Source: Actinomycetota bacterium
Lineage (GTDB): Bacteria; Actinomycetota; Acidimicrobiia; Acidimicrobiales; Ilumatobacteraceae
Direction: 5' to 3'
DNA: 38,744 nucleotides
Assembly: GCA_007279905.1 (NCBI GenBank)
Contig: QYPH01000026.1
Coordinates: 1 to 38,744 of the forward strand
In this document: positions 7,119 through 24,393 of the stretch, in pieces
Position numbering within the stretch: position 1 is the first letter of the stretch
Layout of the letters: each line of letters begins with the position of its first letter
Notes under the pieces: model-generated
The model's input: only the letters and a program-made list of their open reading frames with translations
Database searches by the model: none
Told to the model about the DNA's origin: nothing
Program-made: the position numbers and the translations under genes

Positions 7119-7124
7119 AGCCTA
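7119..7124 (-). promoter_or_regulatory. -10-like box TAGGCT of the gatCAB operon
   Basis: On the minus strand TAGGCT lies 8 nt before the gatC GTG. Its first three bases are the stop codon of the upstream alpha-galactosidase gene. Confidence 0.5.
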
Positions 7125-9272
7125 TTGGCTCTTCAAGTAGATAAGAACTGCGGATTCGGGAAACAGCATTGGTGGTTGGATGCCAACGCGTCCAAGTTGA
7201 GCGCCAGTCATTGTGAATGATGCGTGTTCTTTCGAATCGCCGAGAGGGAGATATGTAACGGTGTATGCAGCATCGCTGAGCAGTCCATGGATTTTCCACA
7301 GCGATGGCACGAGGCCTTGAGATGTTGACAACTGCGCGTAACTCATCACAGCCTTGCGTTTGTCAGTCGAAATTACTCCGTGAGCAACCGCGCTGTTGTC
7401 GGAAGTTACGTCGTAGCGCACAAAGTCTCCGCTGTGCAACAACTCTCGATGTTGTTTGTACAAGCCAATGATGTGACGAAGCTGTTGTTGTTGGTCGTCG
7501 CGCAGGGTGAGCAAATTCCACTCAACACCCATGTGGCCAAACATGGCTGTTGCACCTCTAAACGACAGCGATTGCCTGCGACCAGTGGTGTGTGCGGTGG
7601 GTGGGCCAATGTGTGCACCCATTACTTCGAGCGGCACAAGCATTGATGTGCCACGTTGAATGATTTGTCGCTCAAGAGCGTCGTTGCAGTCGCTTGTCCA
7701 CACGCGCTCGGTTCGGCGCAATATTTCGTGATCAATGCGTCCACCACCCGATGCACAGCTTTCAATTTCCACATGTGGGTGCGCTGCACGCAGTTGGTCA
7801 ATCAATTGATACACCGCTCTAGTTTGATTGTGCGTACCTGGTGCCCCATCGCTTCCGGTTGCATGCACATGCGCTCGGTTCATGTCCCACTTCACATACG
7901 CAATGTCGTTTTCGCCAAGCAGCACATCTAACTGCCTATATATATGTGCGTACGCATCTGGGTGCACAAGATTGAGCACCAATTGGTTGCGTGCCAATAC
8001 GGGTTCATAACTAGGAGGCCCCAACACCCACTCGGGATGTGCACGAAAGAGGTCAGAGTCAGGATTGACCATTTCGGGTTCTACCCAGATTCCAAAATCC
8101 ATACCCAGTTTGCGCACATGCGAGATCAACGGAGCAAGTCCATCTGGATACACGTCTGGCGACACAAACCAATCACCGAGACCAGACTTGTCGTTGCGAC
8201 GCGAACCAAACCACCCGTCGTCTAATACAAAGCGCTCGACTCCCACTGCAGCGGCGGCATCGGCGAGAGCACTCAGTCGTTGTGTGTCGTGATCGAAGTA
8301 CACGGCCTCCCATGTATTGAGCATCACTTTTCGAGGGCGCTCAACCGTTGGATGATGGGAACGCGAACGCACATTGCGATGCAACGCATGAGTTGCACCA
8401 TTGAGACCATCGCCCGACCACGTGCCAATCACTTCGGGGGTTGCATACGACTCACCGGGCTCAAGGCACAACTCGCCCGCATGCAACAGTTCGCCCAACT
8501 GCATATATTTTCTGCCGTCTGGCAATACTTCGGCGAGCAACACCGAGTTGCCGCTCCACGCAAGATGTGCTCCCCACACTTGGCCATTCCATTCGTCTGC
8601 AAAACGTTCGGTTGCAAAGATCAACGGCAAGTGTTCATGAGATGTGCGGCCTGTGCGATTTTCTGCAGTCCATGCACCATCTACAAACTCTCGACGATGC
8701 AACTGTGCTTCACGCGCCCACCGACCACTAAATGTGAGCAACTGTGTTGCACTCTCGGCAACGGGCAACGTAATGGTGAGATTGGTCAGCAAGTATCGCG
8801 ACTCACCGATATTGCGCAAGATCGCGCTCGCGTGCAGTGTGCCCGCTGCACTGCACACAAGTTTGGTTTCAAGTTCGAGTTGCGCAACATCATCGCGCGC
8901 TATCGAAATCAATTGATGATCGACAACTTCGCAACTCACAAAGGAAAACCTTGGCGCCCAATGACGACCGCCAGGACGATGCCCGCCGATACCTGGCCGC
9001 ATTGTGGCACCGTCGCCATGACACGGCACCAATGAAATTGCATTGATCGCATCGGTAACGCCGGGCATGATTGGTCGCGCAGTTGCTGTCGCCATCGCAT
9101 CAAGATTGGCTAGCGAAGCCGCGTTCAACGCTTCACCCCAATACATAATTGTCGGCACTCCACCCGAAACGTCGCACACCACCGACTGGCGAGAATCGCC
9201 GATGTGCTTCAGGATTGGACGCTCTGGTTGAGTAGACACCACTGCGCACGGTACCGTCAGTTGCAGATCCAT
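7122..9272 (-). CDS. Alpha-galactosidase, glycoside hydrolase family 36
   Basis: A 716-residue GH36 enzyme. An N-terminal beta-supersandwich domain (to about 310) is followed by the catalytic barrel. Visible motifs are WEAVYFDH, VLDDGWFGSRRND, FGIWVEPEMVNPDSDL, YVKWDMNRAH with the likely nucleophile Asp463, and ESCASGGGRID followed by WTSDCNDA with the likely acid/base Asp528. It would remove terminal alpha-1,6-galactose from raffinose-type sugars or galactosides. There is no signal peptide, so the substrate must be imported or intracellular. ATG 9272 overlaps the divergent galT ATG. GTG 9239 is an alternative start (VSTQPERPILKHIGD), with TACCGT 8 nt before it, and would lose 11 non-conserved residues. 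Confidence 0.95.
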   Translation of the reverse strand: MDLQLTVPCAVVSTQPERPILKHIGDSRQSVVCDVSGGVPTIMYWGEALNAASLANLDAMATATARPIMPGVTDAINAISLVPCHGDGATMRPGIGGHRPGGRHWAPRFSFVSCEVVDHQLISIARDDVAQLELETKLVCSAAGTLHASAILRNIGESRYLLTNLTITLPVAESATQLLTFSGRWAREAQLHRREFVDGAWTAENRTGRTSHEHLPLIFATERFADEWNGQVWGAHLAWSGNSVLLAEVLPDGRKYMQLGELLHAGELCLEPGESYATPEVIGTWSGDGLNGATHALHRNVRSRSHHPTVERPRKVMLNTWEAVYFDHDTQRLSALADAAAAVGVERFVLDDGWFGSRRNDKSGLGDWFVSPDVYPDGLAPLISHVRKLGMDFGIWVEPEMVNPDSDLFRAHPEWVLGPPSYEPVLARNQLVLNLVHPDAYAHIYRQLDVLLGENDIAYVKWDMNRAHVHATGSDGAPGTHNQTRAVYQLIDQLRAAHPHVEIESCASGGGRIDHEILRRTERVWTSDCNDALERQIIQRGTSMLVPLEVMGAHIGPPTAHTTGRRQSLSFRGATAMFGHMGVEWNLLTLRDDQQQQLRHIIGLYKQHRELLHSGDFVRYDVTSDNSAVAHGVISTDKRKAVMSYAQLSTSQGLVPSLWKIHGLLSDAAYTVTYLPLGDSKEHASFTMTGAQLGRVGIQPPMLFPESAVLIYLKSQ

Positions 9273-9273
9273 G
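9270..9273. other. Overlapping divergent start codons (CATG) of alpha-galactosidase and galT
   Basis: CATG holds the ATG of galT on the plus strand (9271-9273) and, on the minus strand, the ATG of the alpha-galactosidase (9272-9270). There is no intergenic DNA between them if both are used. The galT start is firm, since a stop lies upstream at 9229-9231 and no other usual start codon is near. The alpha-galactosidase start could instead be GTG 9239. Confidence 0.6.
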
Positions 9274-10140
9274 GCTACTCAACACAACCTCACGCATGGT
9301 GGCTCGGGCAATGAACGCATTGATCCCAGCACGGGCACTGTCGTACACGTAGTTGGCTCGCGACAAAATCGCCCCAATTTGCCTGCTACCGATTGCCCAT
9401 TTTGTGTGGGTGGACTTGAGGCGCCTCAACCATACGAAACACATCACTTTGCAAATCGTTGGCCTCCAATGCCAAACGATCGCTGCGAGATCGTGTTGTA
9501 TTCGCCCGATCATGATCAATCTTTTGCGGGTCTAGGTGTAAAAGGAGTGCGAAGCGTTATTGATTTGTGGGCGCAACGAACAACCGAGCTCGGTGCGCGC
9601 GCAGACGTTGATGACGTATTGATCTTTGAAAATCGTGGTCGAGAAGTTGGTGCAACGATTGATCACCCGCATGGACAGATTTATGCGTTTGACCACATTC
9701 CGACACGCACGAGTGCGCGACTGAGCAATGGTTGGACGCCTGATCGATCGCAAGAGCGGCTTGTATACGAGCAGAATGGCTGGCGCACGTCGGTGCCCTA
9801 CGCATCTGCATATCCAATCGCACTCGAGATTTCTCCGTCACAGCAGATTGGAAGCTTGAGCGAACTCAGCTCTCAGCAGCGAGATGCATGTGCGGCAATG
9901 TTGGTGGACGCGCTCTCACGAATTGACGCACTATTCGGTGCGCGTGTGCCGTATATGTTGTGGCTCAATCAGCGACCAACAACAAACGAAATGAAACATG
10001 CAGACGCATGGCTCAATTTTGAAATCGTTTCACCATGGCGCGGCAATGGAGTAATGCGCTATATCGCAGCAGCCGAGGTATCGACCGGAGAATATTTCAA
10101 TCCGATGATTCCTGAAGATCTCGCTGCCGCATTGCGATAA
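9271..10140 (+). CDS. galT: Galactose-1-phosphate uridylyltransferase
   Basis: A 289-residue GalT, shorter than the roughly 350 of the E. coli enzyme. It has the zinc-site CPFC at Cys42/Cys45, the ENRGREVGATIDHPHGQ motif with the nucleophile His134 (HPH), and a second conserved stretch near GARVPYMLWLNQRP. It exchanges UMP between UDP-glucose and galactose 1-phosphate in the Leloir pathway. It is divergent from the alpha-galactosidase, which would supply galactose, and an aldose 1-epimerase lies 7.5 kb away. galK and galE are not in the window. The 3' end overlaps the end of lgt by 44 bases on the opposite strand. Confidence 0.93.
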   Translation: MATQHNLTHGGSGNERIDPSTGTVVHVVGSRQNRPNLPATDCPFCVGGLEAPQPYETHHFANRWPPMPNDRCEIVLYSPDHDQSFAGLGVKGVRSVIDLWAQRTTELGARADVDDVLIFENRGREVGATIDHPHGQIYAFDHIPTRTSARLSNGWTPDRSQERLVYEQNGWRTSVPYASAYPIALEISPSQQIGSLSELSSQQRDACAAMLVDALSRIDALFGARVPYMLWLNQRPTTNEMKHADAWLNFEIVSPWRGNGVMRYIAAAEVSTGEYFNPMIPEDLAAALR

Positions 10141-16187: not shown

Positions 16188-17639
16188 ATGAAGAAACCAA
16201 TAATCAAAGCCATTGTCGCCGGCATGATCGTTGCATTCAGTCTCCCTCCGTGGGGTTGGTGGCCCCTCACCTATGTTGGCGTTGCTCTGTTTGCAACATG
16301 TAAACCAAATAGCAATCGCGAACGATTCATGTTTGGCACAATGTTTGCGATCGCTTGGTTGGCGCCAGGCATGGCTTGGATGTGGTTTCTTACTTCACCC
16401 GGCTACATAATTTCGGCAATTTTATTTTCGGTGTTGCACGGCGTTGCCGCAATGATCACTGGTCTTCTTACCTCTCAACCTCGACACCGAACTTTCATTG
16501 GTCCGCTTGCACATACGTTGGCTGAGGCATTGCGATTTTCATTTCCATTCGGAGGTGTTCCACTTGCAACCTTGGCTATCTCGCAAGCTGCATCACCTAC
16601 GGCGCCACTTGTGCGCATTGGCGGACCACTCCTGCTCACGTACATGGTGTTTCAGATCGGCTTTGCTCTCTCATCCATTCGTTTGGCTCCGCGTGGCAAA
16701 CACATTGCGCTACTTGGCGTAGGCATTGTTGCGATTATTTTCTTCGGACAAATAGCGCCCAACGGACACGACATCGGTCGGTCGCTCAATATTGCTGCCG
16801 TTCAAGGCGGAGGTCCACAGGGCACATTGGCCATTCATACCAATAGTCGAGATGTTGTTGATCGACATCTGGCCGCAACTCGCACTATCGATGCATCGAT
16901 CGGTTACGACTTGGTTGTTTGGCCCGAGAACGTTATTGACGTCAACAGTTTTTCATCGAGTGTCGAGCGCAGCGAAGTGGGTGCTCAGGCTGCCCGACTC
17001 AACGCACCATTTCTTGTTGGCATTACCGAAGATGTTGATGATCGATTTTTTACTAATGCCCAAATTGTTGTCAACACCGAGGGTTCGCTTGGCGATCGTT
17101 ACGACAAAGTGCGTCGCGTACCATTTGGAGAATTTGTGCCGATGCGTGGACTGCTTGAAGCGGTGGGTGCTCCTGTTGACAGAATCCCTCGCGACGCACA
17201 AGCCGGCACTGGTCTGTCAATACTCCGAGCAGCAGACACCACAATTGCTGTTGTGATTTCATGGGAAGTCTTTTTTGCAGGTAGGGCCAACGAGGGCGTC
17301 GAGCGTGGTGCAACGTTGCTCGTAAACCCCACAAATGGCTCGAGTTACACGGGAACGATTTTGCAAACCCAACAAATTGCTTCATCAAGGTTGCGAGCAC
17401 TCGAGACTGGACGTTGGCTCGTACAAGTTTCGCCCACAGGTTTCTCTGCTTTCGTATCTCCCGATGGTCAAGTGTTTGACCGCACCGGTGTGAGCGAGCA
17501 ACGCGTGATCGAACGACAAGTGCAATTGCGTTCCGGCCGCACCATCTATTCGCGTCTTGGCGATCTGCCAATTATTGTCGCGATGAGTGCGTTGTTGCTC
17601 GCGCTCATGATCGTTGGCCGTCGCAAAACGCAAGCATGA
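16188..17639 (+). CDS. lnt: Apolipoprotein N-acyltransferase (Lnt) with Ser in place of catalytic Cys
   Basis: A 483-residue protein with membrane helices across about residues 5-190 and a nitrilase-like domain from about 200 to 450, then a last helix near 461-477. In E. coli Lnt the triad is Glu-Lys-Cys. Here Glu247 (VVWPENVID) and Lys307 (YDKVRRVPFGEFVP) are in place, but the Cys position in the ICYE-type motif reads ISWE, with Ser358 (codon TCA at 17259-17261). Lnt adds the third acyl chain to lipoproteins; with Ser the chemistry may be altered or lost. I start at ATG 16188, the first Met before a membrane helix. It follows hemY by 26 bases and overlaps the next gene by 4. Confidence 0.88.
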   Translation: MKKPIIKAIVAGMIVAFSLPPWGWWPLTYVGVALFATCKPNSNRERFMFGTMFAIAWLAPGMAWMWFLTSPGYIISAILFSVLHGVAAMITGLLTSQPRHRTFIGPLAHTLAEALRFSFPFGGVPLATLAISQAASPTAPLVRIGGPLLLTYMVFQIGFALSSIRLAPRGKHIALLGVGIVAIIFFGQIAPNGHDIGRSLNIAAVQGGGPQGTLAIHTNSRDVVDRHLAATRTIDASIGYDLVVWPENVIDVNSFSSSVERSEVGAQAARLNAPFLVGITEDVDDRFFTNAQIVVNTEGSLGDRYDKVRRVPFGEFVPMRGLLEAVGAPVDRIPRDAQAGTGLSILRAADTTIAVVISWEVFFAGRANEGVERGATLLVNPTNGSSYTGTILQTQQIASSRLRALETGRWLVQVSPTGFSAFVSPDGQVFDRTGVSEQRVIERQVQLRSGRTIYSRLGDLPIIVAMSALLLALMIVGRRKTQA

Positions 17640-18499
17640 CCTCCAATCCGGTCGTCACACTGTCAAGTGGCACCGTTGAAGCAGTGATCGATGCCGATCA
17701 CGGTGCACGTTTGTCAAGTTTGTGTTTTGATGGTCAGGAAATCTTGTTGCAACGCAGCGACAATGATTCACTTTCATGGGGCTGTTACCCAATGGTTCCG
17801 TGGGCGGGACGCATGCGAGACGCAACTTTTGTGCATCATGGCGTCACTCACCATGTGCCCGGAGATCGAGATCCATTGCTCGCACCACACGCAATTCATG
17901 GCCTTGTGTATAACGCACCATGGAAAATTATTGATGCGTCAGCAACAAGCGCAATATTGCGAATAGATTTTGATCATCGCTGGCCGTTTGCTGGATGGGT
18001 CGAACAGCTCGTCAGCGTTGATGCCTCATCAATTGAAATGCGGCTCACTGTATTTATGAATGATCCAGCTATGCAAAAAGTTGCACAAACAGCAATGCAC
18101 ACAGATATGCCCGCTCAAGTTGGCTGGCATCCGTGGTTTGTGCGACCGGTGCAACTTGAGGCCGCATTCAAATCGATGTATGTGCGTGATAGTGCTGGCA
18201 TCGCAACTACACAAGTCGTTACTCCAACAACACTGCAGTTGACTGGCCAAACTCCTTCACCACTCGACGACTGCTTTACCGATGCCGATGCACCGCCAAC
18301 GCTTACATTTGGCAACGGTCTCATCGTGCGTCTCGAAAGCGACTGCAGTCACTGGGTGGTCTACAACAAGCCTGCGCATGCAATCTGCGTCGAGCCACAA
18401 TCTGGACCACCAAACGGACTCAACTCCGAACCGCTGGCGGTACTGCCAAACCAACCCCTCACGCGCAACTTCCGGCTGACTGCACTTGGTTACCCCTAG
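17636..18499 (+). CDS. Aldose 1-epimerase (galactose mutarotase family)
   Basis: A 287-residue protein of the aldose 1-epimerase fold. Typical segments are GCYPMVPWAGRMRDA near residue 49, PHAIHGLVYN near 85 with a catalytic His, GWHPWFVRP near 162 with the second His, and CVEPQSGPPNGLN near the C-terminus with the likely catalytic Glu. It interconverts alpha and beta anomers of galactose, glucose or a related sugar. The start overlaps the lnt stop by 4 bases. The function fits the galactosidase and GalT upstream, though the gene is not in their unit. Confidence 0.9.
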   Translation: MTSNPVVTLSSGTVEAVIDADHGARLSSLCFDGQEILLQRSDNDSLSWGCYPMVPWAGRMRDATFVHHGVTHHVPGDRDPLLAPHAIHGLVYNAPWKIIDASATSAILRIDFDHRWPFAGWVEQLVSVDASSIEMRLTVFMNDPAMQKVAQTAMHTDMPAQVGWHPWFVRPVQLEAAFKSMYVRDSAGIATTQVVTPTTLQLTGQTPSPLDDCFTDADAPPTLTFGNGLIVRLESDCSHWVVYNKPAHAICVEPQSGPPNGLNSEPLAVLPNQPLTRNFRLTALGYP

Positions 18500-18515: not shown

Positions 18516-19808
18516 ATGTCAACGCCGTTCGACCCCAACGGCCCGTTGCGTATTGCCTATCTCACCTACCGAGGCAAGCCCCACGTAGGTGGCCAAGGCG
18601 TGTACACGCGCCACCTGACCAAAGCGCTTGTCGACCTCGGTCACCATGTCGAAGTTTTTGGCGGACAGCCGTATCCGATTCTTGACCCGCGAGTGCAATT
18701 GCACCAACTGCCAAGCCTCGACATTTTTAACGATGCCCACCCCGGTCGATTTCCCGCATATTGGGAGATCAATGACTGGCCAAACTTTGTTGAGTCTGCG
18801 CAATTTCTTAAAGGCACATTTGGCGAGCCACGCTCGTTCAGTATCCGAGCACACCGTGCTCTCAAAACACGGATCAACGACTTCGACATCGTGCATGACA
18901 ACCAGTGTCTCGGTTATGGCATCCTCAAAATCGAAAAAATCATTCCAACCATCGTGACACTGCATCACCCCATCACCAAAGATCGCAAACTCGAGATGGA
19001 GCACACGCCAACATGGTGGAAGCGCAAAGCCATTGGCCGCTGGTACTCGTTTGTTGAGATGCAAGGCAAGGTTGCAAGCAAAATGCCACGCGTTGTCGTT
19101 GTGAGCAAAAACTCTATTGATGACATTCATACCGACATGAAGGTTTCACTTGACCGCATGCGCCTCGTGCCGGTTGGTGTCGACCACGAATTGTTTTCGC
19201 CAAAGCCCACCGTGCAGCGCAAGCCCGGGCACATGATCACCACTGCATCAGCCGATGTTGCACTCAAAGGTCTTTCCTACTTGCTCGAGGCACTTGCCAA
19301 GTTGCGTACCGAGCGCGATGTGCACCTCACCATTATCGGCAAGCCCCGTGAAGGTGCTAACGCCGACCTCATTCGTTCGCTCGGTCTCGAAGATTGCATC
19401 ACGCATGTCTCTGGGGTAACCGACGAGCGCATTGTCGAGTTGTATGCAGAAGCCGAGCTTGCAGTGGTGCCAAGTCTCTACGAGGGTTTTAGCCTTCCGG
19501 CAATTGAAGCGATGGCAACGGGAACATGTTTAGTTGCCACAACAGGTGGCGCGCTTCCCGAAGTAACCGGCACCGACAACGACACTGTGCTGTCGTGTCC
19601 GGCAGGTGACGCAGAAGCGCTGGCAGCAGCAATTCGTCGAGGACTCGACAGCAAAGAATTGCGTGACCGTATCGGTGCCGCTGGCAGAGCCCGCGTTGTC
19701 GAGCGCTGGAGTTGGCGCCATTGTGCTGCACTCACTGTCGATCAATACAAAGAAGTTCTTTCGATGCCGCATAACGTCAAAAAACTCCAACAACGAGACA
19801 GCAAATAA
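18516..19808 (+). CDS. Glycosyltransferase family 4 (GT-B fold)
   Basis: A 430-residue GT-B glycosyltransferase. The N-terminal acceptor domain begins with RIAYLTYRGKPHVGGQGVYT, a glycine-rich loop near residues 12-31. The C-terminal nucleotide-sugar domain has GVDHELFSPKP, then the GT4 signature VPSLYEGFSLPAIEAMATG with the E-x7-E pair. It would transfer a sugar from an activated donor to a lipid, glycan or small molecule; neither partner can be named. There is no signal peptide, so it acts at the cytoplasmic face. It leads a unit with the next two genes, 3 bases and then an 11-base overlap apart, which suggests one pathway. Confidence 0.93.
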   Translation: MSTPFDPNGPLRIAYLTYRGKPHVGGQGVYTRHLTKALVDLGHHVEVFGGQPYPILDPRVQLHQLPSLDIFNDAHPGRFPAYWEINDWPNFVESAQFLKGTFGEPRSFSIRAHRALKTRINDFDIVHDNQCLGYGILKIEKIIPTIVTLHHPITKDRKLEMEHTPTWWKRKAIGRWYSFVEMQGKVASKMPRVVVVSKNSIDDIHTDMKVSLDRMRLVPVGVDHELFSPKPTVQRKPGHMITTASADVALKGLSYLLEALAKLRTERDVHLTIIGKPREGANADLIRSLGLEDCITHVSGVTDERIVELYAEAELAVVPSLYEGFSLPAIEAMATGTCLVATTGGALPEVTGTDNDTVLSCPAGDAEALAAAIRRGLDSKELRDRIGAAGRARVVERWSWRHCAALTVDQYKEVLSMPHNVKKLQQRDSK

Positions 19809-19811
19809 CCA

Positions 19812-20543
19812 ATGCTGACCGTGCGCTTTAGCGAACTTTCTATAGGACCTGGCACGCTGTTTCTCGATGCCGGAGCAGGCTTTGGTCGTCATGCATTTGA
19901 GGCAGCACGCCTCGGAGCACACGTTGTTGCCCTCGACTATGCACACGACGAAGTGGTGGCAATGCGAGCCACGTTTAGTGCCATGTACGAAGCCGGCGAA
20001 ATTAGAGCTGAAAACCTCGTGGGTGTGTTGCGCGGAGACGCAACATGTTTGCCATTTGCCGACAATTCGTTTGACTGCATTGTTACTTCTGAAGTTCTCG
20101 AGCATATTCAAAACGATGTTGGGGCACTGAGCGAACTCGCTCGCGTGCTCAAGCCGGGTGGCACACTTGGGGCAACCGTGCCCTCGTGGTTTCCCGAAAA
20201 AATTAACTGGATGCTGTCGGATGAATACCACGCACCATTTGTTGCTGGTGGCCACGTGCGCATCTATAGCGGAACAGAGCTCAAAGCAAAATTGCGCGCT
20301 GCCGGCTTACGAATTGTTGGACAGCATCGCGCTCACGGTTTGCACTCTCCGTATTGGTGGCTGCGTTGTGCTGTAGGGCCGGCTCGCGAAGACAACAGAA
20401 TGGTCAATGCATATAAAAAGTTTTTGGAGTGGGACATCATCTCCAAACCAATGGTGACCAAAGTTGCCGAACAAGTATTGGCGCCTGTGCTCGGTAAGAG
20501 TTACATCGTCTATTCCATGAAGCCGGTTAACAATGCAAAATAA
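19812..20543 (+). CDS. Class I SAM-dependent methyltransferase
   Basis: A 243-residue Rossmann-type methyltransferase of the Methyltransf_11 kind. Motif I is FLDAGAGFGRHAFEAA (from about residue 17), the acidic end of strand 2 is VVALDYAH, motif II is LRGDATCLPFADNSFD and motif IV is CIVTSEVLEHI. These bind S-adenosylmethionine. The C-terminal part (about 150-243) is likely the substrate-binding cap. It starts 3 bases after the glycosyltransferase stop and overlaps the toroid gene by 11 bases. The acceptor is unknown; the context suggests a sugar or lipid made with the neighbouring enzymes. Confidence 0.9.
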   Translation: MLTVRFSELSIGPGTLFLDAGAGFGRHAFEAARLGAHVVALDYAHDEVVAMRATFSAMYEAGEIRAENLVGVLRGDATCLPFADNSFDCIVTSEVLEHIQNDVGALSELARVLKPGGTLGATVPSWFPEKINWMLSDEYHAPFVAGGHVRIYSGTELKAKLRAAGLRIVGQHRAHGLHSPYWWLRCAVGPAREDNRMVNAYKKFLEWDIISKPMVTKVAEQVLAPVLGKSYIVYSMKPVNNAK

Positions 20544-21573
20544 CCAACTCATCGGCAACCATCTGGATGACGTGATCACTCACGAAGAGTTGCTAGCAAC
20601 CGCCAACTCGATTGCTTCACTGCAACTTGCAAGCGGAATGATTCCGTGGTTTGTGGGTGGACACTGCGACCCATGGAACCATGTAGAGACCGCAATGGCG
20701 CTCGACGTGATGGGCCAGCATGATCAGGCTCAACGCGCGTACGAGTGGCTTACTTCGGTACAACGTGAAGACGGCAGTTGGTTTAACTACTACTTGCCAG
20801 ACGGATCGGTTGAAGAAACCAAACTCGACACCAATGTGTGCGCTTACATCGGCACTGGAGTGTGGCATCACTGGATGAGCACCAACGACAAACAATTTGT
20901 CGCGCGCATGTGGCCAGCGGTCAAGCGGGCGATGGAATGGGTCTTGGCAATGCGTCGCCCAGACGGAACTATTTTGTGGGCGCGCGAAGTGAACGCAAGC
21001 CCATGGGATTATGCGCTCCTCACGGGTTCGTCATCAATCCGTCACGCACTGCATTGTGCTGCAAACATCGGTGCCATCGTTGGCGATTCGCAACCCGAAT
21101 GGCGCGCTGCTGCCGACGCAATTGATGAAGTCATCAACACCAATCTGGATGCGTTTGAGCCAAAACTTCGTTGGGCAATGGACTGGTATTACCCCGTGCT
21201 CACGGGCGCGCTCACTGGCACCGAGGCAAAAACGCGCATTGCCATGCAGTGGGAAGAATTTGTCATTACTGGTCGTGGCGTGCGCTGCGTCAATGACGAA
21301 GATTGGGTGACTGCCGCAGAGACTGCAGAGTGTTCGCTTGCTCACTCTGCCATCGGTGATATCGACACCGCAAAGCAATTGTTGTCCTGGACAAGTGCAC
21401 ACCGCACAGAAAGCGGCGCATACCTCACCGGCATTGTTTACCCAGATCGGATCGTGTTTCCTGCCGACGAGTGCAGTGCATACACCGGTGCCGCAGTGAT
21501 CTTGGCAGCAAGTGCAATCAGCGGAGACACCGCTGCCAGCAAAATCTTTGGTGCATCTACTGTGCTTGACTAA
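20533..21573 (+). CDS. Alpha/alpha-toroid protein, 'prenyltransferase'-like, function unknown
   Basis: A 346-residue cytoplasmic protein rich in repeated helices with Trp and Gly at the turns, for example SGMIPWFVGGHCDPWN, LTSVQREDGSWFNYY and LAMRRPDGTILWAR. The Q-x-x-DG-(S/T)-x-W type repeats recall the alpha/alpha barrel of terpene cyclases, prenyltransferases and some glycoside hydrolases. I see no DxDD cyclase motif and no diagnostic prenyl-diphosphate site, so the usual automatic label of prenyltransferase is doubtful. Two conserved-looking segments, KLRWAMDWYYPVLTGAL and VYPDRIVFPADECSAYTG, are candidate active-site regions. It is the third gene of the GT4 unit and ends 18 bases from the converging methyltransferase. 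Confidence 0.75.
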   Translation: MQNNQLIGNHLDDVITHEELLATANSIASLQLASGMIPWFVGGHCDPWNHVETAMALDVMGQHDQAQRAYEWLTSVQREDGSWFNYYLPDGSVEETKLDTNVCAYIGTGVWHHWMSTNDKQFVARMWPAVKRAMEWVLAMRRPDGTILWAREVNASPWDYALLTGSSSIRHALHCAANIGAIVGDSQPEWRAAADAIDEVINTNLDAFEPKLRWAMDWYYPVLTGALTGTEAKTRIAMQWEEFVITGRGVRCVNDEDWVTAAETAECSLAHSAIGDIDTAKQLLSWTSAHRTESGAYLTGIVYPDRIVFPADECSAYTGAAVILAASAISGDTAASKIFGASTVLD

Positions 21574-21591
21574 TAAGTATGTAAGTGTTAT

Positions 21592-22251
21592 TTATTTCAC
21601 GCGCTTGAGCACTCGCAATGAGCCAGTTGCACTGACGTCTTCAAACTTGCCGCTGTTTTTAGCCGCCAAATAAATCTCCTCAAATGGAGCCTGGCCACCA
21701 AGATTCGGATCTGTGAATACATCGTGAATCACCAGTAGACCACCGCGCGCAATGTGCACACTCCAAGATGCATAGTCTTGTGCAGCGACATCTCGGGCAT
21801 GTCCGCCATCAATAAAGCACATCGCAATCTGTTGTGTCCAGGTGCTTGCAATTGTCGGCGAGTCTCCGACAACAGTTCGCACCGTCTCGGTAAGCCCTGC
21901 ACGACTCATTGTGTTTTCAAAGTGGGGCAACGTATTGAATCGTCCAGTGACAGCATCGACCAATGTTGGGTCGTGCCACTCCCAACCAATCTGGTTTTCC
22001 TCCGACCCACCGTGATGGTCGACCGCAAAAAGTATTACGTTGCAAGTTTCGGCTGCCGCACCAAACCACACAGTGCTTCGACCGCAGTATGAACCAATTT
22101 CAACCATTGGCAATCCGGGGCATGACGCCCCAGCAGCAAGCGCCGCTGTGTACAGCGCATCGCCCTCTTCTTCGGGCATAAAACCAGTCGCGGCTATCGC
22201 AACATCTCGGCGTTCGCCGCTCAGTCGGGTCACGCTGGTATTGCTACTCAC
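21592..22251 (-). CDS. Class I SAM-dependent methyltransferase (Methyltransf_24-like)
   Basis: A 219-residue methyltransferase from GTG 22251. The SAM motif is MVEIGSYCGRSTVWFGAAA, followed by FAVDHHGGSEEN, VVGDSPTIASTW, and the acidic CFIDGGHARDVAAQDYASW with the late strand GGLLVIHDVF. The FIDGGH and HDVF motifs are typical of the Methyltransf_24 type that methylates sugars or O-linked groups. The reading frame extends further upstream, but GTG 22251 begins inside the GH1 stop codon (TAGTG), which gives a coupled pair and a natural N-terminus. It converges with the toroid gene. Confidence 0.85.
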   Translation of the reverse strand: MSSNTSVTRLSGERRDVAIAATGFMPEEEGDALYTAALAAGASCPGLPMVEIGSYCGRSTVWFGAAAETCNVILFAVDHHGGSEENQIGWEWHDPTLVDAVTGRFNTLPHFENTMSRAGLTETVRTVVGDSPTIASTWTQQIAMCFIDGGHARDVAAQDYASWSVHIARGGLLVIHDVFTDPNLGGQAPFEEIYLAAKNSGKFEDVSATGSLRVLKRVK

Positions 22252-23486
22252 TACGCATTGCGCGGAAGCAAGGTGTTTCCTCGCGCAATTCGTCCGAGCC
22301 ACGATGCGCTTGGTCGCGGAGTGCGAACCTGTGTCTTCCAATCAACAGCAACGATTCCAAATGTTGGTCCATAGCCATACATCCACTCGAAGTTGTCCAT
22401 CAGGCTCCAATATGTGTAGCCGCGAATGTCGATCCCGTCGGCAATGCAACTCAACACTCCTTCGAGCGCACCGTGTACGTATTCAATTCGCTCAGCATCA
22501 TCACTTGTTGCAATTCCATTTTCGGTCACGATGATTGGCACGTGGCCTGTTTTTTCCCATGCTCGACGTATACACGCTTCGAGGGCTTGCGGCCTGAACT
22601 CATAGCCCATGATTGTCGTGCGCATGTCGGCGTCGGGCTGTATGCGCCCGTCTTGGTTGAAACGCTCTCGGGTATACGTTTGCACTCCAAAATAGTCGTC
22701 ACCTTTAGCAACTTCTAGAAAGCAGTCTTCTAGACCATCCCATGCCGCATCGCGCTTGCCTACTGCTGCTTCGCGATGAGATTCATCATCCACATTGATG
22801 GTGTATTCCTGCATCGCAAGTGTGATCCCCAAGGGAGCGCTTGAAATTGATTTCACTGCATCGCGCGCCTTCGAGTGCGCCAGACAAAATACTTCATTTA
22901 CTTTGGCACGAGAATCGCGAGACTTTATGCCGGGTGGAAACTCGCCGAGCAAATACCCAATAGTTGAAACCATGTTTGGCTCGTTGATTGTGCACCACTT
23001 GCCAACGCCGTCACCCAATGACTGTGCAACTTTTTCCGAAAATCTTGCAAACAAATCAGCGGTTGATTCATTGATCCAACCACCCTGCGCCGCAACCCAA
23101 CGTGGTGTGGTGAAGTGGTGCAATGTCACAACTGGTGTGACGTTGTGTCGGTGACATGCTTCCAAAACTTTTCGATAGTGATTAATCTCGGCTTGCGAAA
23201 ACTCTCCGTCTTCTGGCTCTATCCGGCTCCATTCAACGCTGAATCGGTAGTTGTCAAAACCCAACTTGGCAAGCATTGCAATATCTTGCTCATACAAGTT
23301 GTAGTGGTCACATGTGTCGCCACTTGGTTCTTTTACGCGAGTTCCAACACGGTGCTCCCACTCCCACCAATCGTTGTTCCAGTTATTGCCTTCCACTTGG
23401 TGGGCTGCCGTGGCAGTACCCCAAGTGAAGCCAGCAGGAAACGCAAGCGGGTTTGATGATGTTGAAGCAGTATTCGCACTTGTCAT
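22251..23486 (-). CDS. Glycoside hydrolase family 1 (beta-glucosidase type)
   Basis: A 411-residue GH1 enzyme. The N-terminal signature FPAGFTWGTATAAHQVEG (from about residue 16), acid/base Glu169 in CTINEPN, and nucleophile Glu322 in IIVTENGIA are all present, with the C-terminal YWSLMDNFEWMYGY binding-site motif. It hydrolyses beta-glucosides, beta-galactosides or related glycosides; it has no signal peptide. Its stop TAG shares a base with the GTG start of the next gene, a methyltransferase, so the two are likely co-translated. The start ATG 23486 lies 8 nt after the -10-like box TAGCGT. At 411 residues it is a little shorter than most GH1 enzymes. Confidence 0.95.
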   Translation of the reverse strand: MTSANTASTSSNPLAFPAGFTWGTATAAHQVEGNNWNNDWWEWEHRVGTRVKEPSGDTCDHYNLYEQDIAMLAKLGFDNYRFSVEWSRIEPEDGEFSQAEINHYRKVLEACHRHNVTPVVTLHHFTTPRWVAAQGGWINESTADLFARFSEKVAQSLGDGVGKWCTINEPNMVSTIGYLLGEFPPGIKSRDSRAKVNEVFCLAHSKARDAVKSISSAPLGITLAMQEYTINVDDESHREAAVGKRDAAWDGLEDCFLEVAKGDDYFGVQTYTRERFNQDGRIQPDADMRTTIMGYEFRPQALEACIRRAWEKTGHVPIIVTENGIATSDDAERIEYVHGALEGVLSCIADGIDIRGYTYWSLMDNFEWMYGYGPTFGIVAVDWKTQVRTPRPSASWLGRIARGNTLLPRNA

Positions 23487-23500: not shown

Positions 23501-23541
23501 GTCGGGCACACACACCCGCCTATTGCTGGCATTATGAAAGG

Positions 23542-24393
23542 GTGAGTAAACCCCTTCAAGACCTGATTACGTTGCTCGATCTCGAAACCATTGAGGTCAA
23601 TATTTTTCGAGGGCAATCACCCGACGAAAATCGCCAACGAGTATTTGGTGGTCAAGTAGCTGGTCAGGCACTCGTTGCTGCTGCTCGCACGATTGACGAA
23701 CCGGGCCGCATGGTGCACTCGTTGCACGCTTATTTTTTGCGACCAGGCGACCCTGGTGTGCCGATTCTGTACGAAGTCGACCGCATTCGTGACGGCAAGA
23801 GTTTTTCAACACGCCGAGTTGTGGCGATTCAACACGGCAAAGCGATCTTTAATGTGCAGGCCAGTTTTCAAAAACCAGAAACTGGACTCGAATATCACAT
23901 TGCGATGCCAACCGATGTTCCATCCCCCGAATCACTTCCCGACTTCAAAGCGTTGATGGAACCGTATAGAGAAAAGCTCGGAGATTGGTACGACCGACCA
24001 CGACCAATTGACATGCGTTATGTAGATGGCAATCCATTTACGCGCAGAGGCAATCCGCAACCCGGCCAACGAGTATGGTTTCGCACCGACGGAAAACTTC
24101 CGGACGACAACGTGTTGCACGCTTGCATCGTTACCTATGCAAGCGACATGACGTTGCTCGACTCTGCGCTCTTGCCACATGGCCGATCACTTGCAGACGG
24201 ATCACTTCAACTTGCAAGCCTCGACCATGCGATGTGGTTTCATCGTGAGTTTCGCGCAGACGATTGGCTGCTGTATCAACAGTCTTCGATTTCGACTTCA
24301 AATTCTCGCGGAATGGCTGAGGGTCATATTTTTACCCAAGACGGAAAACTTGTTGTCACGGTGGTGCAAGAAGGACTTGCTCGCCTTATCTAG
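23542..24393 (+). CDS. tesB: Acyl-CoA thioesterase II
   Basis: A 283-residue TesB with two hot-dog domains. The N-terminal one holds RVFGGQVAGQALVAAART and SLHAYFLRPGDP; the C-terminal one holds TYASDMTLLDSALLPHG with the catalytic Asp, SLDHAMWFHREF and VVTVVQEGLAR with the conserved Gln. It hydrolyses medium- and long-chain acyl-CoA to free fatty acid and CoA. The frame is open further upstream, but homology begins at VSKPLQDLITLLDLE, so GTG 23542 is the start. It ends tail-to-tail with mreB, overlapping by 4 bases. Confidence 0.95.
   Translation: MSKPLQDLITLLDLETIEVNIFRGQSPDENRQRVFGGQVAGQALVAAARTIDEPGRMVHSLHAYFLRPGDPGVPILYEVDRIRDGKSFSTRRVVAIQHGKAIFNVQASFQKPETGLEYHIAMPTDVPSPESLPDFKALMEPYREKLGDWYDRPRPIDMRYVDGNPFTRRGNPQPGQRVWFRTDGKLPDDNVLHACIVTYASDMTLLDSALLPHGRSLADGSLQLASLDHAMWFHREFRADDWLLYQQSSISTSNSRGMAEGHIFTQDGKLVVTVVQEGLARLI

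What the first reader, a model, noticed from the sequence alone, without database searches (positions are those of the whole stretch)
18516..23486. GT4 / methyltransferase / toroid / methyltransferase / GH1 group: candidate undescribed glycan or glycolipid pathway
Three plus-strand genes overlapping or 3 bases apart (GT4, SAM methyltransferase, alpha/alpha-toroid) meet head-on with a coupled minus-strand pair (GH1 and a Methyltransf_24-type enzyme). Two methyltransferases, a sugar transferase, a glycosidase and a cyclase-like barrel suggest synthesis and trimming of a methylated glycoside. The toroid protein has W/G-rich repeats but lacks DxDD, so it may be a new glycan-acting enzyme and not a prenyltransferase. 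No known pathway I can name fits.
Basis: inference. Interest (0 to 1): 0.65.

Follow-up and report, generated by a model that had tools for sequence, protein, structure and literature searches.

The report
Methylmannose polysaccharide gene cluster in Acidimicrobiales
Four of these five genes are the known mycobacterial set for making and recycling a methylated mannose polymer, here in an uncultured bacterium from a group that appears to lack the large fatty-acid synthase this polymer was thought to regulate.

Summary
Four of the five genes are the methylmannose polysaccharide (MMP) cluster known from mycobacteria: manT (the GT4), pmeT3 (first methyltransferase), mmpH (the toroid, an endo-alpha-1,4-mannosidase) and, head-on, meT1 (Methyltransf_24). 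The toroid matches M. hassiacum MmpH (7qsj, E 1.1e-91; model Z 53.1, rmsd 1.5 A), the GT4 matches ManT (7qsg, E 8.7e-118), and the minus-strand methyltransferase matches 6g7d (MeT1, by recall; E 9.2e-59). In 80 chosen mmpH loci, pmeT3 is beside mmpH in 80, manT in 78, and meT1 within the stretch in 71. GH1 is a lineage-specific neighbour (11 of 23 genus genomes) and not part of the set. The host is an uncultured relative of Ilumatobacteraceae (Acidimicrobiales). mmpH is in 94 of 96 genomes sampled from its order. Two points look new: FAS-I, which MMP was proposed to regulate, is in 0 of 99 genomes of the order; and all 60 class loci examined carry Asn where M. hassiacum MmpH has Asp50, which favours Asp47 as the catalytic acid. 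Activities and product are inferred. Verdict: new member of a known kind.

The parts
18516..19808 (+). manT: GT4, alpha-(1->4)-mannosyltransferase homologue
   Evidence: phmmer 7qsg E 8.7e-118, next sequence 2.3e-20; paper gives 7QSG as ManT. H150, K251, E323, E331 (= H142, K240, E313, E321) invariant in 26 of 26 aligned
19812..20543 (+). pmeT3: class I SAM methyltransferase, putative 3-O-methyltransferase
   Evidence: directly upstream of mmpH in 80 of 80 loci; alignment of 26 with 43 invariant columns; model nearest to AtmM and RebM
20533..21573 (+). mmpH: (alpha/alpha)6 toroid, MMP hydrolase homologue
   Evidence: 7qsj E 1.1e-91; model Z 53.1, rmsd 1.5 A, 339 aligned; D46, E263, E266 invariant in 26 of 26
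21592..22251 (-). meT1: Methyltransf_24, 1-O-methyltransferase homologue; GTG start inside the GH1 stop
   Evidence: 6g7d E 9.2e-59, next sequence 0.0098 (that 6g7d is MeT1 is recalled); start read
22251..23486 (-). GH1 beta-glycosidase-type gene, coupled to meT1 here; neighbour, not judged part of the pathway
   Evidence: PF00232 290.9 bits; NEP at 168 and TENG at 321; in 11 of 23 genus genomes against mmpH in 22 of 23

Best explanation
This is an MMP cluster. By analogy with the M. hassiacum enzymes, ManT extends alpha-(1->4)-mannose chains from GDP-mannose, pMeT3 methylates the new units at O-3, MmpH cuts mature chains internally into oligomannosides that prime new chains, and MeT1 caps free reducing ends with a 1-O-methyl group: a self-recycling replication of a short methylmannan. 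Shown here: homology, conserved catalytic residues, the fold of MmpH, gene order and strands, and near-universal presence in the sampled order. Inferred: all activities, the product, and its role. GH1 is a passenger. Since the sampled order has no detectable FAS-I, the polymer's role there is probably not control of FAS-I; binding of acyl chains from another synthase, or growth in the cold as in M. smegmatis, are open options.
For: Three of four proteins have their mycobacterial counterpart as best solved match by a wide margin (7QSJ and 7QSG named in the paper). MmpH fold. Catalytic residues kept. Same order and strands in L095, whose MmpH matches 7qsj with 646 bits over 323 residues. In 80 chosen loci pmeT3 80, manT 78, meT1 71; the nine without a local meT1 have it elsewhere in the genome. 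mmpH in 94 of 96 order genomes. Tree of three proteins puts the window within its family. Candidate mannose-1-phosphate guanylyltransferase in the same genome.
Against: No chemistry has been done in this lineage. Identity to the mycobacterial relatives is moderate (45-50%). Two residues of the MmpH sugar site differ throughout the class loci examined: Asp50 to Asn and Phe102 mostly to Val; Asp50Ala cut activity sharply in M. hassiacum. pMeT3 is only putative even in mycobacteria. meT1 is not always linked (9 of 80 loci).
Confidence: 0.9

Rival explanations
1. An MMP-like pathway with a changed product: the same four steps, but a polymer of other length, methylation or decoration.
For: Asn for Asp50 and mostly Val for Phe102 in the sugar site of MmpH in 60 of 60 and 49 of 60 class loci, against Asp in 16 of 20 and Phe in 17 of 20 outside the class. 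Streptomyces griseus makes an acetylated form of MMP (paper).
Against: ManT, MeT1 and pMeT3 keep long invariant stretches, and the other named residues of that site are kept in all 60.
Confidence: 0.3
2. A five-gene pathway in which GH1 trims a methylated glycoside.
For: GH1 and meT1 share one base here; GH1 holds this place in several families of the order (5 of 80 and 9 of 80 loci).
Against: mmpH is in 22 of 23 genus genomes, GH1 in 11 of 23; among the 8 genus genomes of at least 90% completeness and at most 5% contamination, 8 have mmpH and 2 have GH1. The MMP backbone is alpha-linked (paper), while GH1 enzymes act on beta-glycosides (recalled).
Confidence: 0.04
3. The toroid is a terpene cyclase or prenyltransferase-type protein.
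For: Weak Pfam matches to squalene-hopene cyclase domains (20.1 bits, cut-off 26.1); a squalene-hopene cyclase at Foldseek rank 30 with TM-score 0.59.
Against: Below the cut-off, no DxDD, and 7qsj far ahead in sequence and fold.
Confidence: 0.01

Closest known systems
MMP cluster of nontuberculous mycobacteria (meT1, mmpH, pmeT3, manT; PMC9883506)
   Same: All four genes; manT-pmeT3-mmpH in one direction with meT1 convergent, as in L095; catalytic residues of ManT and MmpH
   Different: Another class of Actinomycetota; Asn for Asp50 and Val for Phe102 in MmpH; GH1 coupled to meT1 here; host order without detected FAS-I
Acetylated MMP of Streptomyces griseus (named in PMC9883506)
   Same: Genomes of about 6-10 Mb in one phylum family (f73; Streptomyces by inference) carry the same trio (L089-L093)
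   Different: MmpH keeps Asp50-type residue there; meT1 lies 3.5-8.3 kb from mmpH in 4 of these 5 loci and outside the stretch in the fifth
GH15/GH125 (alpha/alpha)6 glycoside hydrolases
   Same: Barrel fold; glucoamylases and other toroid glycosidases follow 7qsj in the fold comparison
   Different: Sequence below the GH15 cut-off (13.5 of 22 bits); Z 28-37 against 53.1 for MmpH

Membership tests
MMP cluster | ManT homologue with its catalytic residues | tested here: met
MMP cluster | MmpH homologue: fold and catalytic Asp47 and Glu262 | tested here: met
   D46 and E263 kept; 7qsj best in sequence and fold
MMP cluster | Asp50 of MmpH (Asp50Ala loses most activity in M. hassiacum) | tested here: not met
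   Asn49 in the window and in 60 of 60 class loci. A conserved change at one non-defining residue; the paper holds either Asp47 or Asp50 for the acid
MMP cluster | MeT1 homologue | tested here: met
   6g7d E 9.2e-59; identity of 6g7d recalled
MMP cluster | pMeT3 in place | tested here: met
   80 of 80 loci, aligns along its length with the Mycobacterium-type rows
MMP cluster | Production of 3-O-methylmannose polysaccharide | not testable with these tools
   needs chemistry
Squalene-hopene cyclase / prenyltransferase | Pfam cut-off; DxDD | tested here: not met
   20.1 of 26.1 bits; DxDD absent
GH15 | Pfam PF00723 cut-off | tested here: not met
   13.5 of 22 bits
GH1 (22251-23486) | PF00232 cut-off; NEP and TENG active-site motifs (motifs recalled) | tested here: met
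   290.9 of 22.6 bits; motifs at 168 and 321

The most novel reading that the evidence does not exclude
MMP, known as a mycobacterial speciality thought to regulate FAS-I, is an old and near-universal trait of Acidimicrobiales. It is kept there without FAS-I, perhaps in a chemically altered form set by the Asn/Val-type MmpH, so its basic role must be something else, such as handling acyl chains from a dissociated synthase or growth in the cold.
Probability: 0.4. Interest if true: 0.6.

Novelty: new member of a known kind. Interest (0 to 1): 0.4.

Why it matters
MMP and MGLP bind acyl chains and modulate FAS-I in vitro, but their role in the cell is unsettled (passages of PMC2674218 and PMC4555173). 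A group that carries the cluster (94 of 96 genomes) with no detected FAS-I (0 of 99; 38 genomes with mmpH are in both draws) separates the two and makes the question testable outside mycobacteria. The natural Asn at position 50 bears on which aspartate of MmpH is the catalytic acid. No paper in the library searched holds both 'methylmannose' and 'Acidimicrobi*'.

Tried and rejected
A five-gene pathway with GH1: rejected, as GH1 comes and goes while the other four stay.

Terpene cyclase or prenyltransferase: rejected.

A link to the acyl-CoA thioesterase (TesB type, 23524-24393) beyond GH1: a homologue is near in 26 of 80 loci, all within the 40 loci of the order, but Lnt upstream is kept about as often (25 of 80), so this may be plain synteny. 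Left open.

GDP-mannose supply with TIGR01479: 0 of 21 genomes over the cut-off. A weak match in the window's genome led to a 337-aa protein whose best solved matches are mannose-1-phosphate guanylyltransferases, E 3e-47.

Other widely kept neighbours that might prime MMP: ORF clustering in 81 stretches (80 loci and the window) gave mmpH in 81, manT in 80, meT1 in 71; pmeT3 fell into split clusters (50 in the largest); no other family exceeded 25. The manT count there includes the distant GT of L077 or similar and so differs from the 78.

The PNAS 2019 paper on MeT1 is not held. MGLP genes were not tested.

Full report
WHAT IS THERE. All five genes exist at the stated coordinates. On the + strand: GT4 18516-19808, methyltransferase 19812-20543, toroid 20533-21573. 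On the minus strand: GH1 22251-23486 and a Methyltransf_24 enzyme whose likely start is GTG 22251, sharing one base with the GH1 stop. Spacing: 3 bases, an 11-base overlap, and an 18-base convergent gap.

WHAT THEY ARE. The toroid's best solved match is M. hassiacum MmpH (7qsj, E 1.1e-91, residues 13-340). The GT4 matches 7qsg at E 8.7e-118 against 2.3e-20 for the next sequence. The PDB label of 7qsg is 'D-inositol 3-phosphate glycosyltransferase', but the paper gives 7QSG as ManT and 7QSJ as MmpH. The minus-strand methyltransferase matches 6g7d (with 6g80, 6h40) at E 9.2e-59 against 0.0098 for the next. That these entries are MeT1 is recalled; the label reads 'Methyltransferase domain protein'. 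The second methyltransferase has only distant solved relatives, best MitM at E 5e-14. Its model (pLDDT 90.7) is nearest to AtmM and RebM. 6uv6 (AtmM) is labelled 'D-glucose O-methyltransferase'; that RebM also methylates a sugar is recalled.

FOLD. The toroid model (pLDDT 93.3, pTM 0.92) matches 7qsj at Z 53.1, rmsd 1.5 A, 339 aligned. The next row is dextran dextrinase, Z 37.4, rmsd 2.8, 333 aligned. Foldseek gives 3.6e-33 for 7qsj and 1.6e-08 for the next entry; a squalene-hopene cyclase is at rank 30 with TM-score 0.59.

THE KNOWN PATHWAY. PMC9883506 (abstract and outline; sections 4, 6, 12, 14, 16 and 18 read; passages elsewhere) describes a four-gene cluster. MeT1 caps O-1, MmpH cuts MMP, ManT extends it, and pMeT3 probably methylates O-3. 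MmpH products serve ManT and MeT1, hence a self-recycling scheme. An MmpH-negative M. smegmatis mutant grew more slowly at 15 C but not at optimal or higher temperature. [quoted passage not shown] Two other papers (passages only) state that MMP and MGLP bind acyl chains and regulate FAS-I in vitro, with the role in the cell open (PMC2674218; PMC4555173).

NEIGHBOURHOOD. I fetched 80 stretches (L049-L128) out of the mmpH hits, chosen by me for contig length and spread: 40 in the window's order (20 of them in its family), 20 elsewhere in the class, 20 elsewhere in the phylum. mmpH is there by choice. pmeT3 lies upstream of mmpH on the same strand in 80. manT lies upstream of it in 78: L077 has only a distant GT far off, and L128 ends before manT. 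meT1 is within the stretch in 71, convergent in 68 and on the mmpH strand in 3. The nine genomes without it there (G114, G040, G317, G342, G071, G281, G275, G157, G027) all have it elsewhere, in G317, G342 and G027 on the same contig within about 15 kb. In 80 named loci pmeT3 is in 79, manT in 74, meT1 in 65; some gaps are at contig ends, others are not. The named loci all fall in or near this class, come from a scan whose patterns partly fix Glu263 and Glu266, and at least 3 of them (L134, L142, L153) are the same contigs as loci of the first set, so the two sets are not independent. L095, whose MmpH matches 7qsj with 646 bits over 323 residues, has the same order and strands as the window.

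DISTRIBUTION. In the class sample 147 of 296 genomes match: 94 of 96 in the window's order (own, genus and family included) and 53 of 200 outside it, three of these (G018, G038, G062) weak. The two misses in the order are G138, which also lacks manT and meT1, and G265, which has a meT1 match but no manT. In the phylum sample 83 of 396 match, 65 of them below E 1e-40; the other 18 are weak and may be other toroid glycosidases. Four genomes of family f2 have a divergent MmpH (32-38% identity) with manT and meT1 on the same contig. A quick tree of ManT+pMeT3+MmpH (81 rows) puts the window in its family with SH-aLRT 100 and needs 4 changes for four kinship groups, the least being 3, as mostly vertical descent would give.

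HOST. The nearest named records are MAGs titled Acidimicrobiaceae, Acidimicrobium, Acidimicrobiales and Ilumatobacteraceae, several with lake names; MmpH is 92% identical in Acidimicrobiaceae isolate RE-16jun15-108. Placement in Ilumatobacteraceae is inferred from these titles. The window's genome is 1.54 Mb in 93 contigs, 69% complete.

FAS-I. PF08354, one domain of the type I synthase, is in 0 of 99 genomes of the order, 78 of them at least 90% complete and at most 5% contaminated; of 14 control genomes Corynebacterium glutamicum rings. Forty of these 99 were also in the mmpH draw, and 38 of the 40 have mmpH. In the phylum draw of 396 the domain is in 16. By size and handles this is the draw: of its 65 genomes with strong mmpH, 12 have FAS-I and 53 do not; 4 of the 16 FAS-I genomes lack mmpH. 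The draw favours relatives of the window, so these are counts and not rates.

ACTIVE SITE. Paper numbering to window: Asp47 D46, Trp49 W48, Asp50 N49, Asn101 N101, Phe102 V102, Thr163 T164, Met215 M216, Tyr219 Y220, Glu262 E263, Glu265 E266 (offset read from the alignment). In the 60 class loci of the first set D46, E263 and E266 are kept in 60, and position 49 is Asn in 60. In the 20 loci outside the class, position 49 is Asp in 16 and Asn in 4. Position 102 is Val in 49 of 60 (else Thr 5, Cys 4, Gln 1, Ile 1) and Phe in 17 of 20 outside. The paper's mutants left Asp47 and Asp50 as candidate acids and its figure names Asp47; natural Asn at 50 supports Asp47, provided these enzymes are active.

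GH1. It is beside or near meT1 in 5 of 80 and 9 of 80 loci of the two sets. In the genus it is in 11 of 23 genomes at E below 1e-20, mmpH in 22 of 23. In the 10 genomes with both, they lie on one contig less than 1 kb apart. All 12 genus genomes without GH1 have an mmpH match. GH1 is an old neighbour kept in some lineages and not needed by the set.

MECHANISM, SHOWN AND INFERRED. Shown: homology, residues, fold of MmpH, gene order, distribution. Inferred: activities, product, recycling and role. A candidate mannose-1-phosphate guanylyltransferase on another contig of the same genome (best solved matches at E 3e-47) suggests a GDP-mannose supply.

LITERATURE. Searches. No paper in the library holds both 'methylmannose' and 'Acidimicrobi*'. 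Most subscription papers are not held, so earlier mention cannot be excluded.

VERDICT. A known pathway in a large lineage where I found no report of it. The call of a methylated-glycan pathway was good; the claim that it is undescribed does not stand.

Noticed in passing
7122-10140: A GH36 alpha-galactosidase gene (minus) and a GalT-type galactose-1-phosphate uridylyltransferase gene (plus) start back to back, sharing two bases at 9271-9272: a galactoside-use pair.
   Followed up: partly
17636-18499: An aldose 1-epimerase family gene ends 16 bases before manT on the same strand and may be co-transcribed; a homologue is in 12 of 80 loci.
   Followed up: partly
23524-24393: An acyl-CoA thioesterase (TesB type) is divergent from GH1 and syntenic with the cluster in 26 of the 40 order loci; it may be plain synteny, but MMP is known to bind acyl-CoA.
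   Followed up: partly
G014, G134, G214, G269 (family f2 of the order): A divergent MMP-type set (MmpH 32-38% identical to the window's); in G214 manT is about 8 kb away on the other strand.
   Followed up: partly
G138 (family f10 of the order): No match to MmpH, ManT (E below 1e-40) or MeT1 in a 97% complete genome: an apparent loss of the whole set.
   Followed up: no
L139, L146, L149, L175: MAG records titled Ferrithrix thermotolerans or Bifidobacterium breve carry Acidimicrobiia-type clusters; the titles look wrong.
   Followed up: no
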